Made by a program: the position numbers and the translations under genes
In this document: piece after piece, positions 24,353 to 31,296 of the stretch
Layout: every line of letters starts with the position of its first letter
Position numbering within the stretch: position 1 is the stretch's first letter
NCBI RefSeq assembly: GCF_003265305.2
Contig: NZ_CP033459.1
Location: forward strand, 2,294,001 to 2,358,000
Length of the DNA stretch: 64,000 nt
From: Pseudoprevotella muciniphila
Lineage (GTDB): Bacteria > Bacteroidota > Bacteroidia > Bacteroidales > Bacteroidaceae
Direction: 5' to 3'
The notes under the pieces: model-generated
Database searches by the model: none
The model's input: the letters and a program-made list of their open reading frames with translations, nothing else
What the model was told of the DNA's origin: nothing

Positions 24353-25474
24353 ATGAAAAAGATTATATTAACGATAGTAGCCTACGTTGTTGCAATGGCA
24401 ACAAGTGTCAGCATGGCGCAAACCGAAGACGGAACATTCAGCATTATGACGCTCAATGTGGACGGACTGCCCGGAAAATTCCTGATGTTCGACGTCAACA
24501 AGGATGGTCCAAAGTCTGATGGCAGTTTAGCAATAAGTAAATACATCTTGAGCAAGGATTGCGACATTATTGCTATGCAGGAAGATTTTAATTATCGTTG
24601 GGAGATTTGGTCGCATCTCTTTGCCAATTATGACCACGACGAGTGGACCGGAGGTGTCATTTTCGAAGAAATGCAAGACTGCGACTTTATACACCCGCAA
24701 AATATCAAACTGCCATGCGACGGACTGAATATGTCGTGGAAGAAGAATAGTCAGTCAACTGCCTACGAGCGTGTGGCATGGGAGAAAAGTTTCGGTAAGT
24801 TCAGCCACGAATTCGATGATATCGTGACTAAAGGCTTCCGCCGCCATGAAATGACTTTAGAAAATGGCAAGCAACTGGTGGTATATAATATGCACATGGA
24901 TGCAAGCAGCCTCAGGGACGAGCGTTTAGGTAACGACGTAAAAGACCGTGAAGCGCGGCAATCACAGTGGGAACAGTTGCGCGACCATATCCTCGTGCAT
25001 CTCGACAGTCGTCCCATTGTTGTTGTTGGCGACATGAACAGTCTTTATCACAAGGATTCTGTAGAGTCTGTCTTTATCAATGCCATAAATGCTACAGGAC
25101 GCGCAACTTCCGGCGACGCATGGGTAACCTTGCAGAGAAATGGTATTTATCCGAAACTTGGCGATGAGCCGCAAAAAGATGAACTTCTCGACAAGGTTAT
25201 CTATATCAATCCAACGGATGCTGACTACACCATCATTCCTGTGAGTTATGAAATGGACAAGGCGGGCTATACTGTCGATGGTGAACCTCTTGGCGACCAT
25301 TACCCCGTCATTGTGCATTTTAATACGCTACGGAGCAAGAATGTCAGTGGTGTAAATACAGTAAATTCCACAATAACCGATGAGAAATGGTATTCACCTC
25401 AAGGTGTTCGTCAACATGGCATAACCAAGGGAATAAACATTAGCGGTAGCGGTAAGAAGGTGCTGGTGCGATAA
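24353..25474 (+). CDS. Secreted EEP-fold hydrolase with shared C-terminal tail
   Basis: 373 residues, signal peptide about 1-22 (ending SMA). It is an EEP/sphingomyelinase-like fold: MTLNVDGLPG, IIAMQEDFNYRW, YNMHMDASS, VVVGDMNSLY and LGDHYPVIV. It is distinct from the EEP protein at 21.5 kb, with little resemblance beyond motifs. The C-terminus WYSPQGVRQHG...GKKVLVR is a variant of the tail seen on other secreted proteins here, suggesting a common export or anchoring route. It is co-transcribed with the preceding hydrolase, so a lipid or phosphodiester substrate is plausible but unproven. Confidence 0.87.
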   Translation: MKKIILTIVAYVVAMATSVSMAQTEDGTFSIMTLNVDGLPGKFLMFDVNKDGPKSDGSLAISKYILSKDCDIIAMQEDFNYRWEIWSHLFANYDHDEWTGGVIFEEMQDCDFIHPQNIKLPCDGLNMSWKKNSQSTAYERVAWEKSFGKFSHEFDDIVTKGFRRHEMTLENGKQLVVYNMHMDASSLRDERLGNDVKDREARQSQWEQLRDHILVHLDSRPIVVVGDMNSLYHKDSVESVFINAINATGRATSGDAWVTLQRNGIYPKLGDEPQKDELLDKVIYINPTDADYTIIPVSYEMDKAGYTVDGEPLGDHYPVIVHFNTLRSKNVSGVNTVNSTITDEKWYSPQGVRQHGITKGINISGSGKKVLVR

Positions 25475-25572
25475 TCTGCACAATAAGCCTATATTTTTGG
25501 GTATCTTCTTATAAGAAACTATTTCAATTGTGGAAAAAAAGATGGCATCTAAGCAAAAACAGCCTTAGAATG

Positions 25573-25610
25573 AAAAATCCGCTACTTTTGTTGGAAGTAA
25601 CGGATTTTTT
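25573..25610 (+). terminator. Terminator of the hydrolase/EEP operon
   Basis: AAATCCG plus TACTT pair with AAGTA plus CGGATTT around a short loop, followed by T-rich sequence, about 100 bases after the stop of the EEP gene. Confidence 0.8.
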
Positions 25611-25663
25611 GTACCTTTACAGCGTGAGAGGTGGATTAACCTTTAGAGACCGCGTCTCATTCC

Positions 25664-25689
25664 AGCCAAGTTAAACGCTTGGCTTTTTT
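25664..25689 (+). terminator. Second terminator, AGCCAAG/CTTGGCT
   Basis: A 7-bp stem with a 7-base loop is followed by six T. The preceding ~50 bases contain two further short palindromes, so this could end a small RNA rather than back up the first terminator. Confidence 0.65.
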
Positions 25690-25690
25690 A

Positions 25691-25968
25691 TTTGAACGCG
25701 AATTACGCTAATTTCGCGAATCCATGCGGCATGAAAATGACGCAAATTTTGCCAACGCTTCGCGCGGCGATTACGCGAAGGCTTGCAGAATGTTTGTGCA
25801 GCGGAAATAAATAGCTTCTATGCCGAATGGCTTCGCGTAATCCATCGAGCGAAGCAATGATAAAATTAGCGTAATTTCACAACACGCGATAAAATATCCC
25901 GAAAGGCTTCGCGAAATTCTTGCGGTAGCAAGCGAGCAGAGCTCGATTACGCGTAATTCGCGTTCAAA
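25691..25968. repeat. 278-bp element with 18-bp perfect terminal inverted repeats
   Basis: TTTGAACGCGAATTACGC (25691-25708) recurs exactly inverted at 25951-25968. A second pair (AATTTCGCGAA near 25710-25720 and TTCGCGAAATT near 25909-25919) is nested inside. The interior has many CGCGAA, TTCGCG and GATTACGCG words. No ORF. It resembles a MITE or a large REP-like palindromic unit. Confidence 0.8.
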
Positions 25969-26065
25969 AAAGTCTGCCACGCAAGCGGCACTTCTTTTTA
26001 ACGTGAGTTCGATATAAGAAATTAGTTTTTTGTTGCATAGTAGTCCTGTAAGGACGTTACAACCA

Positions 26066-26294
26066 TAGGCAGGGGTGGAAGGAGCAAAGCGACTGAAACC
26101 CCTGTTTTTCAGCGTATAAGAAACATAAACCCCATAGGGGTGCTACAGAAAAAAACAAATAACGATACATTTGCACACGATGAATATAATATGATGTTTA
26201 ATCTCTTAATTCCTGTGTCGCCCATACTGGGCTCACTGTGTTGTTCTGTACATAACAGGGGTTTCAGTCGCTTCGCTCCTTCCACCCCTGCCTA
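26066..26294. repeat. 229-bp element with 41-bp inverted arms
   Basis: Arms at 26066-26106 and 26254-26294 are inverse complements with a single mismatch. The interior holds two small palindromes (ACCCC-ATA-GGGGT and GCCCA-TAC-TGGGC) and a promoter-like TACATTTG at 26166-26173. No ORF. Confidence 0.8.
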
Positions 26295-26455
26295 CGCTGT
26301 ATCGCCGCTCCGCGGCTAACGGACACCAATCTTTCAAAATTTATTTATTTGTGAGATTTGTATGATTTGTATTATTTCTGCCTCGACAGAGGCACTAGAT
26401 TTACTTTAGTCGCTTCGCGAGTCTTTTATTCCTAACCTCTATCTTTTCTTTTGCT

Positions 26456-27580
26456 TTACTTCGCACCCTTCCTGCGATTACATTCGCGGCAGAGCATCTG
26501 GCAGTTTTCGATGACGGTTAGCCCGCCATCCCGCCAGGGGGTGATGTGGTCGCCCTCCATGAATTCAAAGTCGTATTCCTTTCCGCAGTGTGGGCAGATG
26601 TGGTTTTGTTTCTCCCATACGGCGAGTTTGATATTTTGAGGGAATGCTCGTAGGTCGAGAAAGCGCTCGTCGCCTGTCAGGACGTAGGGTATGATGCCTT
26701 TCTGTCGCTGTATTTCGCCATCTGTCATGAGTTCTGAGATACGCTTGCCGAGATCGGCAGCGTCGAGGGTTTCTGAACGGTATTTATCGTAGTAGAGCGC
26801 CCAGTCGAGCCCTTTCATGATGCGCCGGAACTTCTTCATGTCGAAGTTGGTCTGTGCCCAGTTGAGCACGTTCTGGAAGTATGTCCAGAGGTTGTTGGCG
26901 TTAGGGTCGTGCTGATGTGCTGCCATGTATCCCACGGGCGTCTGTCGCTTTCCTTCGCGCGTTTCATGGTCTGCCATCCATTCGAGTGCTCTTTTCAGGA
27001 AGTCCTGACGTATGGGCGTGCCGTCCACAAGGTCTTTCCCCAAGCGGTATGCGCCGCAGTTCGACTTTGAGAAATGGCGCTTGGCATCACTCACGAATGG
27101 TCCGGCATACACGGCATTGTTTATTTCCTGTTCGTTGAGTGGTTTGCCGGCGATGTTGATGGTCTTGAACCACTCAAGTTTCTCCGACGCCTCGCCCTCG
27201 CAGACGTAAACCGTGAGTTTGTAGTCGAGTATTTTGTTCTTGATGTCGTCGGTGAGGTTGAAGAAGTTCTTGAAGTCGTAGGAGAACTTCCCTGCCACAT
27301 ATTCGCAGAGCGACAGCGTGCGCTGCTGCCCGTCCATCACCTCGTAGGGGCACTCCGCATCGTCGCTCCGCTTCACCCAATACATCACGTTGAGCGGGTA
27401 GCCGTGCAGCACGGTCGTTATCACTGCCTGCTGCTCCTTGTCGCTGTAGATGAACTCACGTTGATAAGGCGGACGAATATCTAACTGGCCGTTATAACCA
27501 CGCACACCTTGCTCATCGTTATTGATATAACCAGTAGTTATATCTCTTACTGTTACTTCTATTTGTTTTATCGTCATCAT
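26456..27580 (-). CDS. DUF262-HNH nuclease-like protein
   Basis: 374 residues, no signal peptide. The N-terminal DUF262 (ParB/GmrS-like) domain has RPPYQREFIY near 36-45 and the hallmark DGQQR at 83-87. A middle helical region follows. Residues about 329-374 form a zinc-stabilised HNH module: CPHC, GDHITPWRDGG, NCQMLCRECN. In GmrSD-type enzymes DUF262 supplies nucleotide-dependent recognition and HNH supplies DNA cleavage; the same division is inferred here in one chain. Its ATG overlaps the stop of the upstream EcoRI-family methyltransferase, strongly suggesting a functional pair, perhaps restriction-modification or phage defence. Confidence 0.88.
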   Translation of the reverse strand: MMTIKQIEVTVRDITTGYINNDEQGVRGYNGQLDIRPPYQREFIYSDKEQQAVITTVLHGYPLNVMYWVKRSDDAECPYEVMDGQQRTLSLCEYVAGKFSYDFKNFFNLTDDIKNKILDYKLTVYVCEGEASEKLEWFKTINIAGKPLNEQEINNAVYAGPFVSDAKRHFSKSNCGAYRLGKDLVDGTPIRQDFLKRALEWMADHETREGKRQTPVGYMAAHQHDPNANNLWTYFQNVLNWAQTNFDMKKFRRIMKGLDWALYYDKYRSETLDAADLGKRISELMTDGEIQRQKGIIPYVLTGDERFLDLRAFPQNIKLAVWEKQNHICPHCGKEYDFEFMEGDHITPWRDGGLTVIENCQMLCRECNRRKGAK

Positions 27581-28671
27581 GGCATTTGGGGGTGTTTGTT
27601 GCGGATGAAAATTCGTGCATATTTCTTTTTACCATTTATATGCCAACCATCAGCACCTGGCGAGAGCAGTTCTACTTCTTTTGAAACTACATCTTTAATA
27701 TTTATATTGGCATATTTCTTGGAATAATCATTGGCATTTACTATTTCAAATTGTTCTGGGCAATACTTGTCAAGGAAAGTTATAGGAACTCCCATTATTC
27801 CATCATAGTTACAAGGGATGTCAGACGTTCTATCTACATTGATTGCGTCGTAATTGTCATATTGAGGGTATTCTTCAGGGGAGTAGCGGCAAACTAAATC
27901 GAGTTCTTCGTGACGCTTGTTATGATCCATATTTGTGAACCATCTTACTCCTTTTACTCTTATATACTTCCTTCCATCATCATCAATGCCACAAGTTGCT
28001 GCATTTAATGGATAATCATCTGGAACATTAAATTTCCTATCACCACTTGTTATACTCGGACCTATCCACATCTTATTTTCTTTAATGAGTGGGAAAATGT
28101 CCCTATATGTTAATGCGTTAACGTTGCCTATTATCAAAAACTTCTTCCCATACTCCATAAGTTGTGCCACATACTCCCGAAATAGTGAGAAGGGCGGGTT
28201 GGTAACGACGATGTCTGCCTGTTTGAGGAGTTCTATACATTCCTTTGAGCGGAAATCGCCGTTGCCCTTGAGTTCCGAAAGCACATTCTTGTCGTTTTGA
28301 ATCAGGTACTCCACGTCAGCGAGATCCACTGCCCCGTCTCCGTTCACGTCCTTTACTTCGGATATCTCTACTTTGTAGGCAATCTTCTTTTCGTTGCCTT
28401 CGGTATCAAGTCCGAAGAGGGATAGTTGTGTACCTGCTACGGGTGAACCGTTGTAGCAGGTGCAGATGAGTTTTTTCAGCCCGAGTTGGTTGAAACGCAG
28501 GGCAAAATATTTGAAGAAGTTGCTTTCGTAGGGGTCGTCGCAGTTGCAGAGCACCACCTTGCCGCGGAAATGCTGCCAATAGTGCTGCAACTCGCGCTCT
28601 ATGTCCGCCATCTGCGTATAGAATTCATCCTTTTTTGCAGACTTTGCGGCATTCAGTGTCTTGTTTGCCAT
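27577..28671 (-). CDS. Adenine-specific DNA methyltransferase, EcoRI family
   Basis: 364 residues from MANKTLNAAKSAKKDEFYTQ; a longer in-frame start (28743) lies inside the structured leader and is rejected. It belongs to the EcoRI-type N6-adenine methyltransferase family, with CDDPYESNFFKYF near 44-56 and the catalytic NPPF at 158-161. Unusually for a cytoplasmic enzyme, residues 108-119 form a perfect EF-hand/dockerin-like calcium loop (D.N.DG..D..D). The gene is translationally coupled to the DUF262-HNH gene. Specificity may be EcoRI-like but cannot be read from sequence. Confidence 0.92.
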   Translation of the reverse strand: MANKTLNAAKSAKKDEFYTQMADIERELQHYWQHFRGKVVLCNCDDPYESNFFKYFALRFNQLGLKKLICTCYNGSPVAGTQLSLFGLDTEGNEKKIAYKVEISEVKDVNGDGAVDLADVEYLIQNDKNVLSELKGNGDFRSKECIELLKQADIVVTNPPFSLFREYVAQLMEYGKKFLIIGNVNALTYRDIFPLIKENKMWIGPSITSGDRKFNVPDDYPLNAATCGIDDDGRKYIRVKGVRWFTNMDHNKRHEELDLVCRYSPEEYPQYDNYDAINVDRTSDIPCNYDGIMGVPITFLDKYCPEQFEIVNANDYSKKYANINIKDVVSKEVELLSPGADGWHINGKKKYARIFIRNKHPQMP

Positions 28672-28731
28672 AATATGGATTGATAGTTGGTTCATTGCAC
28701 GCTTCACTATCAATCCGCTGCACACAACAAG

Positions 28732-28812
28732 GGCGTGATGCACCTTATTGCGTTCAGCTTTGAGGCAGCCTCGGACGGAAACCTCAGGTAACTAACAAGA
28801 ATGCACCACGCC
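28732..28812 (-). other. Structured leader of the methyltransferase operon
   Basis: GGCGTGATGCA (28732-28742) pairs with TGCACCACGCC (28802-28812) as an 11-bp stem; on the minus-strand RNA the one non-identical position is a G-U wobble. A shorter inner hairpin TGAGG/CCTCA lies between. The structure sits 60-140 bases upstream of the methyltransferase ATG. The rest of the gap up to 29094 shows no gene, and no clear promoter. Confidence 0.5.
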
Positions 28813-29093
28813 TGAGCGCAGTTGCATTGCTATATTGCTACCTAAGGCGTTCCATACGAACACCTTATCACATATTACTTCTGTGCGTTATGTTATTTCC
28901 AAAGAGTTTCCGAGGCTTTTGGCTGAACGCGAAATAATAGCGAATGCTGTTGTTGTTTGTCGGGGTTTTTCTCCCGATTCGGTTGTAAAATTACTAAAAA
29001 GTTTGGGAAGGAAGTAGTCTGGGGGATTTTTTTACCACGAACGATCACGATTTTATAGCTTAGCGAGTGTTTTTCTCCACGTGTTTTAGGAAT

Positions 29094-29128
29094 GGAAAAA
29101 AAGGAGACAAGCGGTTGCCTGTCTCCTT
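29094..29128 (-). terminator. Terminator after the fasciclin gene
   Basis: A long AAGGAGACA/TGTCTCCTT stem with a short loop is followed by T residues on the minus strand, 21 bases after the stop. Confidence 0.85.
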
Positions 29129-29148
29129 GTTGTTTCTTGTAAAGCTGA

Positions 29149-31296
29149 TTACCAGATGTCTTCCGGTTCTGTGCCGTTGAAGACGTTAGCCGGTACGAGT
29201 TCAAAGTAGTCAAGGAAGAACTGTGAGTCAAGTTTCTTCAATGATGATTTGAAGCGCAGGTAATATGTCTTGTTTGCTTTCATGTCTGCCACAGTAATGA
29301 TACGACGCAGTGCCGGCAAAGAGCCATAGCCTTGGTCGCGGGCAGAGCTTTGGAACATGGTATCCCAGAAATAAGCGGGTGCTTTCATGTAGCCGTGCGT
29401 GCGGAGTTCTTTGTCGTTCTCAATGATGAGGTCTTCATCGAAATTGAGGTCTTCATCTTTGATGTATGGCACTTCGTAGTTTTCGAATGTTCCTGTGTCC
29501 TTGTTGTAGTTTGTGCCTTGACGCAAGTCGAACGGCAGACCCACAGGCAGTGTGTTGTCTGGCGATTCACCGAAGTATATGGTACACATGCCTCTTGAGG
29601 GGTTAAGAGCGGAACCCATACGGATTTCGTAGGTACCATCAATAGGTACCGGCGGGAGGCGTAATATGAAGTCGTACAGTCCGGAGAACAGGTATTCGTC
29701 GCCTTGGTAGTCGTGCCAGTAGCCGTAGCCATTCCATCCGCATACCAAATAATAGATCTCAGTTCCGTCTGTTTCGTTAGAGATGTCTTCGAAATAACCA
29801 TGCTGGAAGGCTTGGTATTTAATGGCGCGGAAGTTGTTTGAGATGAGTTCCGGAGTTATAGTAGTAAGGTCGAACCTTATTCTTTCGCTACCGAGTGCGC
29901 GACGTGTTTCTATATCATAGAGCAGAATGCCGTCGATGGGGTAGTAGTAGCCGTTAGAAGCATTGTTGTCATTTGCTCCGTTGTTGGCATTTATCTTGAT
30001 GTTGATGCCCGAACCTGTTGTGTATGGGCGTGTGGAGATTTCTTTATATGTTCCCTTGATACCATTATCGTATTTTGAAATGCGATTGAGGTAGATTTCA
30101 TGTTCACCAGTAGGAACCTGAAGGACCTTTATCAAGCCTCTTCTGCCGTCTGAACCCATGTTGATTGTATAGAAGTAATCCCAGATGTCAACGGTGTAGT
30201 TTACTTCTTGCGGCTCAAGTATGTTTGAACCAAAGCGGTAGTTGTGTTCGCAGCAATGGTGTACAAACCTGTTGTATGCCATCTTTCCTTTTATGAAGTG
30301 GTAAGCAACGAAGCGATAGAAGGCGCTGTTGGGGTTCTTTGGGTCGTCGCTTGTGGCATCTGGATAGGCAGCCTGCACCTTAGCCTTGATTTGTGGTTCG
30401 ATGGCTTCCCAGTTGGTAATGTCACCAAAATCGTTAGTCTGTGGCATCGTGATGCCCCATTCTTTTTGGAATACACTGTCGGTCTCTACGAAAGCGGTGA
30501 AGCCCAGATACCGGTGGCGAGGGATGTCCCAGTTTTGGTTGGAACCTTGGTATGCCACACTTGACCAATAGCGAGTTTCAGGCAAATTCTCATCGTTCTC
30601 ATAGTCCATATCCTTCTCTATGGCAAGACTATCTTGAAGACCTGTTATTTCAAGCAACTTACCGAAAATCTTGAGGTTGTCTGCACTCTTAATGAGTTCT
30701 GCCACATTGTTTCCGGAAGGTGCGATTACAGTTGAAACGAGGTGGAGGTAGCCATTGGTCGCTTCATAGTCTGCCGTTTGAACAGGTGAAGTGCCATTGA
30801 TGATATACACGTCATTTTCGTTAACAACACATGACAATAGACGGTCGTTGAGGTTAGTATTGAGGAATGACCCATTTACAGGGAATTCTGCCGATTCGTA
30901 GGCGTTTGCTCTTCCGCAGTCGATGATACAACTATATGCGATGAGTTGCTTCTGTTCGTATGTCAACTGACTGACGTCCTTGCTGCCCGTAATCTTTTCG
31001 CAATATGCTTCCACAGCTTCATTCGTTGGTGCGAATACGGTGTAGTTTCCTCGTGCTGAGAGTACGCTTGAGAGCGACGATGCGCGGTCGGAGGAGCTCA
31101 GACGCACCTCTTCCAGGATTGCTTTGATATACGACAGACTGTCGTTTCCGGTTATTAGTTCTGTCAGTGTGGGCTTGTCTTTAATGGCATAGTTAGAATC
31201 ATCAATTTCCTCGGAGCATCCTGCAAAAAAAGATACAATACCAACGAGGAACAGCATCTGTATGCCTCTAATCAGATTAAGTCGGTTAAGCTTCAT
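29149..31296 (-). CDS. Fasciclin-domain surface lipoprotein
   Basis: About 715 residues from MKLNRLNLIRG (an ATG three codons earlier is also possible). The lipoprotein signal ends VSFFAGC, with the acylated Cys followed by SEEID, an acidic start of the kind that directs Bacteroidetes lipoproteins to the surface. The first ~190 residues form a FAS1 domain (GNYTVFAPTNEAVEAY). The rest (200-715) is unassigned, rich in aromatic residues and beta-like, with DYFELVPANVF near the C-terminus. Such proteins are often adhesins or parts of glycan-uptake loci; no SusC/D partner is adjacent. It stands alone between terminators. Confidence 0.82.
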   Translation of the reverse strand: MKLNRLNLIRGIQMLFLVGIVSFFAGCSEEIDDSNYAIKDKPTLTELITGNDSLSYIKAILEEVRLSSSDRASSLSSVLSARGNYTVFAPTNEAVEAYCEKITGSKDVSQLTYEQKQLIAYSCIIDCGRANAYESAEFPVNGSFLNTNLNDRLLSCVVNENDVYIINGTSPVQTADYEATNGYLHLVSTVIAPSGNNVAELIKSADNLKIFGKLLEITGLQDSLAIEKDMDYENDENLPETRYWSSVAYQGSNQNWDIPRHRYLGFTAFVETDSVFQKEWGITMPQTNDFGDITNWEAIEPQIKAKVQAAYPDATSDDPKNPNSAFYRFVAYHFIKGKMAYNRFVHHCCEHNYRFGSNILEPQEVNYTVDIWDYFYTINMGSDGRRGLIKVLQVPTGEHEIYLNRISKYDNGIKGTYKEISTRPYTTGSGINIKINANNGANDNNASNGYYYPIDGILLYDIETRRALGSERIRFDLTTITPELISNNFRAIKYQAFQHGYFEDISNETDGTEIYYLVCGWNGYGYWHDYQGDEYLFSGLYDFILRLPPVPIDGTYEIRMGSALNPSRGMCTIYFGESPDNTLPVGLPFDLRQGTNYNKDTGTFENYEVPYIKDEDLNFDEDLIIENDKELRTHGYMKAPAYFWDTMFQSSARDQGYGSLPALRRIITVADMKANKTYYLRFKSSLKKLDSQFFLDYFELVPANVFNGTEPEDIW

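What the first reader, a model, noticed from the sequence alone, without database searches (positions are those of the whole stretch)
26456..28671. Coupled EcoRI-family methyltransferase and DUF262-HNH protein: candidate restriction/defence pair
The sequence shows two genes with ATGA overlap: an N6-adenine methyltransferase (NPPF) and a single-chain DUF262 (DGQQR) plus C-terminal zinc HNH protein. Classical EcoRI systems pair this methyltransferase with a PD-(D/E)XK endonuclease, and GmrSD pairs DUF262 with DUF1524 HNH and needs no methyltransferase. Here elements of both are combined, in an accessory pocket flanked by inverted-repeat elements. Inference: methylation marks self DNA and DUF262-HNH cuts unmarked DNA, or the reverse. 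Whether this pairing is already catalogued I cannot tell.
Basis: partly seen in the sequence, partly recalled or inferred. Interest (0 to 1): 0.8.

Follow-up and report, generated by a model that had tools for sequence, protein, structure and literature searches.

The report
R-M pair with swappable methyltransferase specificity
This is a real and very common bacterial gene pair, already listed in databases as a type II restriction-modification system, but comparing 127 relatives shows that the DNA-marking enzyme swaps its reading parts freely while the cutting enzyme stays the same, so the cutter is probably told what to cut by its partner or by the mark and does not read DNA for itself.

Summary
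At 27577-28671(-) lies a full-length EcoRI-family N6-adenine methyltransferase (PF13651). ATGA-coupled to it at 26456-27580(-) is a single-chain DUF262 + HNH protein with intact DGQQR and HNH/zinc residues. The pairing is not new: PADLOC-DB matches both proteins end to end as 'Type II' enzymes, and NCBI names the two genes side by side on plasmids. It is near-obligate: 180 of 182 judgeable homologues have the methyltransferase directly upstream. The host carries a second pair.

What seems unreported is where specificity lies. Two methyltransferase blocks (residues 204-243 and ~311-352) are conserved when the partner is R.EcoRI (13 of 13), so they probably read the site. With DUF262-HNH partners they are shuffled: 28 x 65 types, 101 combinations in 127 systems. 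The nuclease does not follow: it can be 98-99% identical (dN/dS 0.01-0.04) while both blocks differ. GAATTC is not avoided in the host genome (145 seen, 139 expected).

Best reading: methylation marks self, and a generic NTP-driven HNH nuclease takes its specificity from the methyltransferase, as in type III systems, or reads the mark, as SspE does. It is a new variant of a known kind. Activity, site and NTP use remain untested.

The parts
27577..28671 (-). EcoRI-family N6-adenine DNA methyltransferase (364 aa)
   Evidence: PF13651 E=1.3e-158; PADLOC MTase_II E=4e-133; AlphaFold2 model pLDDT 80, residues 17-256 align to M.TaqI 21-233, Z 9.6
28189..28200 (-). catalytic NPPF motif (MTase residues 158-161), invariant
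   Evidence: sequence; alignments A1 and A4
27943..28062 (-). TRD-like block 1 (MTase residues 204-243), type T1 'GPSITSGDRKF...': hypervariable with DUF262-HNH partners, conserved with R.EcoRI partners
27616..27741 (-). TRD-like block 2 (MTase residues 311-352), a type seen only in this system (C26)
27577..27580 (-). ATGA overlap: last codon of the MTase and first codon of the nuclease
   Evidence: sequence; the -4 overlap recurs in 26 of 180 homologous loci
26456..27580 (-). DUF262-HNH nuclease (374 aa)
   Evidence: Pfam; PADLOC REase_II full length E=1.5e-125; AlphaFold2 pLDDT 88
27110..27571 (-). DUF262 / ParB-Srx NTPase-type domain (residues 4-157)
   Evidence: Pfam GmrSD_N at 34-157; structural match to BrxU (Z 8.8), SspE (7.6) and ParB CTPases (7.5) over 4-147
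27320..27334 (-). DGQQR motif (residues 83-87), invariant
26462..26596 (-). zinc HNH (beta-beta-alpha-Me) domain with catalytic residues intact
   Evidence: Pfam HNH E=1e-13; structural match to Cas9/IscB HNH and 4h9d
25677..25982 (.). inverted-repeat element downstream of the nuclease gene; repeat family of the host genome, not part of the pair
26066..26294 (.). inverted-repeat element (41-nt arms, 98% complementary); many related copies in the host genome, not part of the pair

Best explanation
A two-gene restriction-modification (anti-phage, anti-plasmid) system. SHOWN: a methyltransferase of the M.EcoRI family and a DUF262-HNH nuclease are arranged as an overlapping operon, co-inherited and almost never apart. 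The methyltransferase carries two cassette-like blocks that are exchanged between lineages, while the nuclease is under strong purifying selection and shows almost no co-variation with those blocks. INFERRED: the two blocks are the target-recognition parts, so methylation specificity changes freely. The nuclease therefore cannot read a site of its own. It is generic, and learns self from non-self either by acting in complex with its methyltransferase (as Res with Mod in type III systems) or by sensing the m6A mark itself (as SspE senses phosphorothioate). The DUF262 domain (DGQQR) binds and hydrolyses an NTP as the licensing switch, and the HNH domain nicks or cuts DNA that lacks the host mark. 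Of the two, methyltransferase-directed action is put first because the nuclease was never found without its partner. The site recognised by the window's own enzyme is unknown and probably not GAATTC.
For: Linkage 180 upstream + 2 downstream of 191 nuclease-first loci, the other 9 truncated. Blocks = specificity: in 13 MTases paired with R.EcoRI they stay 70-100% identical to M.EcoRI (block 2 not readable in the truncated L273) although the catalytic part falls to 50%. With DUF262-HNH partners, at catalytic identity 0.8-0.9, 62% of pairs have block 1 below 40% identity and 93% have block 2 below 40%. 28 block-1 types x 65 block-2 types, 101 combinations in 127 systems. The nuclease does not follow: distance correlation with block 1 is 0.13 (0.58 with the catalytic part), partial correlation about 0 in every 41-residue segment; 2 of 374 columns associate with block-1 type against 101 for a control trait; block-1 changes on the nuclease tree are near random, 72 observed vs 81.7+-2.6 shuffled, control 11 vs 42. 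Swap seen in DNA: L088/L089 nuclease and spacer 95-100% identical, MTase 5' part 90-97%, block 1 36%, block 2 under 30%. L116/L125 nuclease dN 0.008, dS 0.709 with different blocks. Structure: DUF262 = BrxU/SspE/ParB fold plus HNH. Literature: DGQQR is essential for GTP hydrolysis in SspE, a PT-stimulated NTPase (PMC9646914); TRD movement is described for type I S and type III M (PMC3983042).
Against: No biochemistry, methylome or phage data exist for this pair or were available here. That the blocks set specificity is inferred from their conservation in EcoRI pairs, not shown by mutants or motifs. Block-1 type is not wholly random on the nuclease tree (0 of 300 shuffles reach 72 changes), and residues 162-163 of the nuclease show weak association. 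No M-R complex could be modelled with the tools at hand. Many sequences are metagenome bins. The helical middle (148-312) of the nuclease has no tested fold and could hold a DNA-reading site.
Confidence: 0.6

Rival explanations
1. Orthodox type II R-M: the nuclease itself recognises and cuts the same sequence that the methyltransferase modifies, possibly GAATTC as for EcoRI.
For: PADLOC places both proteins in Type II models. Johnston et al. 2017 list a P. intermedia EcoRI-like MTase with a 1104-bp REase gene immediately downstream as a GAATTC type II system (PMC5608340). L020 has EcoRI-type blocks (80% and 89%) with a DUF262-HNH partner.
Against: The nuclease is almost unchanged while the methyltransferase's blocks are replaced. 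The window's blocks are only 28% and ~20% identical to M.EcoRI. GAATTC is not avoided in the host genome (145 vs 139 expected) although CATATG and GTMKAC are ~10-fold depleted. The P. intermedia system showed no GAATTC methylation (PMC5608340).
Confidence: 0.2
2. Modification-sensing, SspE-like (one of the two branches of the best explanation, taken alone): the DUF262 domain reads the m6A mark in any context as self, hydrolyses NTP and releases, and the HNH domain nicks DNA without marks. No M-R complex is formed.
For: Same DUF262 fold and DGQQR motif as SspE. A generic mark-reader would also leave the methyltransferase free to change its site.
Against: The C-terminal nuclease is a short PF01844 HNH, not DUF1524. 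No nuclease without its methyltransferase was found among loci with enough flank, whereas a general m6A reader could work with any methylase.
Confidence: 0.3
3. Type IV (GmrSD-like) modification-dependent restriction with an incidentally linked methyltransferase.
For: N-terminal DUF262 as in GmrSD and BrxU.
Against: No DUF1524. Near-obligate methyltransferase partner in 182 of 182 judgeable loci. Attack on its own m6A would be suicidal.
Confidence: 0.05

Closest known systems
EcoRI R-M system (M.EcoRI, PF13651)
   Same: The methyltransferase is a full-length homologue (about 48% in the catalytic part), with NPPF.
   Different: The nuclease is DUF262-HNH, not the PD-(D/E)XK R.EcoRI. Gene order is M then R (R then M in EcoRI). 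The specificity blocks differ and are swapped between relatives.
PADLOC-DB REase_II PDLC03418 + MTase_II PDLC03297 (catalogued type II pair)
   Same: Both proteins match end to end (1-371 of 372 and 7-331 of 332). It is the same family.
   Different: The catalogue gives no mechanism. The 'type II' label assumes a nuclease that reads its own site, which the comparison here makes unlikely.
P. intermedia M.Pin25611FORF1345P / Pin25611FORF1345P (PMC5608340)
   Same: EcoRI-like MTase gene (972 bp) with a 1104-bp REase gene directly downstream; 2.6-kb locus absent from another strain. Size and order fit this family (membership inferred, its sequence was not compared).
   Different: Typed as GAATTC and 'inactive' because no GAATTC methylation was seen. 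The present analysis suggests the predicted motif may simply be wrong.
GmrSD / BrxU (type IV)
   Same: DUF262 N-terminal domain with DGQQR; closest solved structure of the N-terminal domain (BrxU, Z 8.8).
   Different: Those carry DUF1524, act on modified cytosine and need no methyltransferase.
SspE (SspABCD-SspE)
   Same: DUF262 NTPase plus HNH-superfamily nuclease that spares self DNA by a mark.
   Different: The mark is phosphorothioate. The nuclease domain is DUF1524 in a 771-residue protein.
Type III R-M (Mod/Res)
   Same: Specificity blocks in the modification gene move between systems while the restriction subunit stays conserved (TRD movement: PMC3983042).
   Different: Res is an SF2 helicase-nuclease, and Mod belongs to another methyltransferase class. 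Here the partner is a small DUF262-HNH protein.

Membership tests
PF13651 EcoRI-family MTase | full-length profile match and NPPF motif | tested here: met
   E=1.3e-158, 6-359
PADLOC REase_II / MTase_II (catalogued type II pair) | full-length match of both proteins | tested here: met
EcoRI R-M system | R is a homologue of R.EcoRI (PD-(D/E)XK) | tested here: not met
   nuclease is DUF262 + HNH; no R.EcoRI homologue in the host genome
EcoRI R-M system | EcoRI-type specificity blocks in M | tested here: not met
   28% (block 1) and about 20% (block 2) identity to M.EcoRI, against 70-100% in 13 R.EcoRI-paired MTases
EcoRI R-M system | GAATTC is the site | tested here: inconclusive
   GAATTC not avoided, 145 vs 139 expected in 464 kb; lack of avoidance does not exclude it
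Orthodox type II R-M | R recognises the same site as M on its own | tested here: inconclusive
   no co-variation of R with M's specificity blocks speaks against it; no biochemistry
GmrSD type IV | DUF262 N-terminal domain with DGQQR | tested here: met
GmrSD type IV | DUF1524 (PF07510) nuclease domain | tested here: not met
   PF01844 HNH instead
GmrSD type IV | stands alone, no methyltransferase | tested here: not met
   180 upstream + 2 downstream of 191 loci, rest truncated
GmrSD type IV | cleaves modified-cytosine DNA | not testable with these tools
   needs enzyme assay
SspABCD-SspE | partner genes making phosphorothioate | tested here: not met
   the partner is an m6A methyltransferase; no such genes among the neighbouring ORFs
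SspABCD-SspE | mark-stimulated NTPase | not testable with these tools
   DGQQR intact; needs assay
Type III R-M | specificity carried by M, moved between systems, with a conserved R | tested here: met
   (that the blocks set specificity is inferred)
Type III R-M | R subunit is an SF2 helicase-nuclease | tested here: not met
   374-aa DUF262-HNH

The most novel reading that the evidence does not exclude
A separate mechanistic class of restriction-modification hidden under the 'type II' label: a compact generic DUF262 (NTPase)-HNH nuclease programmed by an EcoRI-family methyltransferase whose two recognition cassettes are shuffled independently. It would give type III-like freedom of specificity without a helicase, possibly with non-palindromic sites.
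Probability: 0.45. Interest if true: 0.8.

Novelty: new variant of a known kind. Interest (0 to 1): 0.57.

Why it matters
The pair is among the commoner R-M arrangements in gut and rumen Bacteroidota, and occurs on plasmids, in viral contigs and in many other phyla, yet no study of its mechanism was found in the searches made. If the nuclease takes its specificity from the methyltransferase, then (1) predicting its site by overall similarity to M.EcoRI (GAATTC) is wrong for most members, which matters for transforming these bacteria; (2) it is a small programmable module whose site could be changed by swapping methyltransferase cassettes; and (3) it would show how the DUF262 NTPase fold, known from type IV and phosphorothioate systems, serves ordinary m6A self-marking.

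Tried and rejected
Novelty of the pairing: rejected, it is catalogued. GAATTC isoschizomer: not supported for this member. A co-varying specificity segment in the nuclease: sought in 41-residue windows and per column, essentially none. Chance or artefact adjacency: rejected. Inverted repeats as cassette boundaries: rejected, they are genome-wide repeats and on one side only. Rfam: nothing in 25400-29300. Empty-site test: the left flanking gene occurs in 2 of 41 genomes and the right one is multi-copy, so no clean empty site was seen. Solved homologues by sequence: only HNH matches for the nuclease, none for the methyltransferase. Foldseek on the methyltransferase gave no hit below E=1e-3; VIA-align gave M.TaqI and rRNA m6A enzymes. 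No known fold was listed for nuclease residues 148-312, which is untested, not evidence of a new fold. Stretches meant as non-carrier controls were mostly unusable (G032 contigs tiny); G037 gave 160 kb.

Full report
WHAT IS THERE. The window holds two overlapping genes on the minus strand: 27577-28671 (364 aa) and 26456-27580 (374 aa), joined by ATGA at 27577-27580. The first is a full-length EcoRI-family N6-adenine methyltransferase (PF13651, E=1.3e-158, NPPF at 158-161). The second has DUF262/GmrSD_N at 34-157 and an HNH domain at 329-373. The DGQQR motif, HNH residues D344-H345/N359/N368 and zinc cysteines are conserved in 25-46 diverse homologues. AlphaFold2 models (pLDDT 88 and 80) place the N-terminal nuclease domain with BrxU, SspE and ParB CTPases, the C-terminal domain with Cas9/IscB HNH domains, and methyltransferase residues 17-256 on M.TaqI 21-233.

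IS THE PAIRING REAL AND IS IT NEW? It is real and common. Of 150 related genomes, 61 have a match to the nuclease (short HNH-only matches included) and 47 a PF13651 methyltransferase, almost always next to each other. Of 191 loci found with the nuclease alone (relatives, GTDB genomes, IMG/VR contigs), 180 have the methyltransferase directly upstream on the same strand, 2 have it directly downstream, and 9 are truncated by a contig end or, in L005, by the stretch taken, where the genome shows the methyltransferase 2.2 kb away. The exact -4 overlap recurs 26 times. The host has a second pair (42% identical nuclease) about 112 kb away at G000:C1:2206476-2208703. Members occur in Bacteroidota, Fibrobacterota, Clostridia, Actinomycetes, candidate phyla (Saccharibacteria, Gracilibacteria), on conjugative and mobilizable plasmids, and in viral contigs.

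The pairing is not new. PADLOC-DB matches both proteins end to end as REase_II and MTase_II, and NCBI annotates 'adenine-specific methyltransferase EcoRI family protein' next to 'DUF262 domain-containing protein'. Johnston et al. 2017 list a P. intermedia EcoRI-like methyltransferase gene with a 1104-bp REase gene directly downstream as a GAATTC type II system, inactive by methylome and in a 2.6-kb locus missing from a second strain (PMC5608340). The size and order fit this family, but I did not compare that sequence. Papers searched on DUF262 (PMC4619093, PMC10952713, PMC12707154) discuss GmrSD, BrxU, SspE, Menshen, Dazbog and PD-T4-2; none of the passages I read describes this pair.

THE INFORMATIVE FEATURE. 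Two methyltransferase blocks, residues 204-243 and about 311-352, vary far more than the rest. To learn what they do I compared methyltransferases of the same family whose partner is the sequence-specific R.EcoRI. In 13 of 13 such cases (plasmids of Escherichia, Klebsiella, Leuconostoc, Staphylococcus and Rhodococcus, and Bacteroidia genomes; 62-78% R.EcoRI identity in the more distant ones) block 1 stays 70-100% identical to M.EcoRI, and block 2 likewise wherever it is intact, although the catalytic part drops to 50%. Conservation of exactly these blocks where the site is fixed by the partner marks them as the specificity parts (inference).

With DUF262-HNH partners the same blocks are exchanged. 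In 127 systems there are 28 block-1 types, 65 block-2 types and 101 combinations. At catalytic identity 0.8-0.9, 62% of pairs have block 1 below 40% identity and 93% have block 2 below 40%; no R.EcoRI-paired comparison does. The two blocks move independently (L024/L027: block 1 97%, block 2 23%). DNA comparison of L088 and L089 shows cassette exchange directly: 95-100% identity through spacer and nuclease, 90-97% in the 5' half of the methyltransferase, 36% at block 1, under 30% at block 2, unrelated flanks.

The nuclease does not follow. Its distances correlate 0.58 with the methyltransferase's catalytic part but 0.13 with block 1, and no 41-residue segment has a partial correlation beyond +-0.05. 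Two of 374 columns pass the null for block-1 type, one for block-2 type, against 101 for a control trait in the same gene. Block-1 type changes 72 times on the nuclease tree (shuffled 81.7+-2.6; for the three main types 33 vs 37.4+-2.4), against 11 vs 42 for the control trait. Nucleases with different blocks beside them are under strong purifying selection: dN/dS 0.011 for L116/L125 (98% identical protein, dS 0.71) and 0.042 for L088/L089. So the nuclease works unchanged beside methyltransferases that most likely read different sites.

MECHANISM. An orthodox type II nuclease could not survive this: after a cassette swap its own site would be unprotected. Two models remain. (a) The nuclease acts through its methyltransferase, as Res acts through Mod in type III systems, where the same TRD movement is described (PMC3983042). 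(b) The DUF262 domain reads the m6A mark itself, as SspE reads phosphorothioate through its DGQQR GTPase domain (PMC9646914). I favour (a) slightly, because the nuclease was never found without this methyltransferase. In both, the DUF262 NTPase is the switch and the HNH domain the cutter. Shown: anatomy, linkage, block exchange, absence of co-variation, selection on the nuclease. Inferred: specificity role of the blocks, NTP use, complex or mark-sensing, defence.

THE WINDOW'S OWN SITE. Its blocks are type T1 (24 members) and a block-2 type seen once; they are 28% and about 20% identical to M.EcoRI. GAATTC is not depleted in 464 kb of the host genome (145 vs 139), while CATATG (9 vs 103) and all members of GTMKAC are strongly depleted. 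Which system causes those depletions is unknown; a link to this pair is possible but untested.

LIMITS. No activity data. Many relatives are metagenome bins, though isolates and complete plasmids show the same pair. Weak residual phylogenetic signal of block type remains. The catalogued class (type II) is a database label, not a tested mechanism.

Noticed in passing
host genome G000 (464 kb sample, L236-L255 and window): Very strong avoidance of CATATG (9 vs 103 expected) and of the AccI set GTMKAC (GTCGAC 7/99, GTATAC 6/66, GTAGAC 19/90), also GGCC, AGCT, GATC and GTCAC; points to several active R-M systems in this genome.
   Followed up: partly
G000:C1:2206476-2208703 (L002, L274): Second EcoRI-family methyltransferase + DUF262-HNH pair in the same genome, 42% identical nuclease, different specificity blocks.
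   Followed up: partly
window 28297-28353 (MTase residues about 107-125): Calcium-loop-like insert DVNGDGAVDLADVEYL (weak dockerin/EF-hand hits) in the methyltransferase; an insert here is carried by 67 of 127 relatives and tracks the nuclease phylogeny.
   Followed up: partly
L088:4021-4950; L030:634-1491: Extra genes between methyltransferase and nuclease in some loci: a Fic-domain protein (HPFIDGNGRTGR) and a DinD-like protein, named from sequence only.
   Followed up: no
L276 (G068:C27:142000-152000): Two different EcoRI-family methyltransferases in tandem next to one divergent DUF262-HNH nuclease (M-M-R), as might be needed for a non-palindromic site.
   Followed up: no
window 25677-25982 and 26066-26294: Inverted-repeat elements with many related copies in the host genome (68 matches to the stretch), some in tandem clusters at 930-934 kb.
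   Followed up: partly
L269, L271, L273, L224-L228: R.EcoRI homologues (63-78% identical) with EcoRI-type methyltransferases in Bacteroidia; rare (4 of 395 genomes) compared with the DUF262-HNH partner.
   Followed up: partly
L233 (Rhodococcus pyridinivorans plasmid): R.EcoRI and M.EcoRI homologues followed about 840 bp downstream by a larger DUF262 protein.
   Followed up: no
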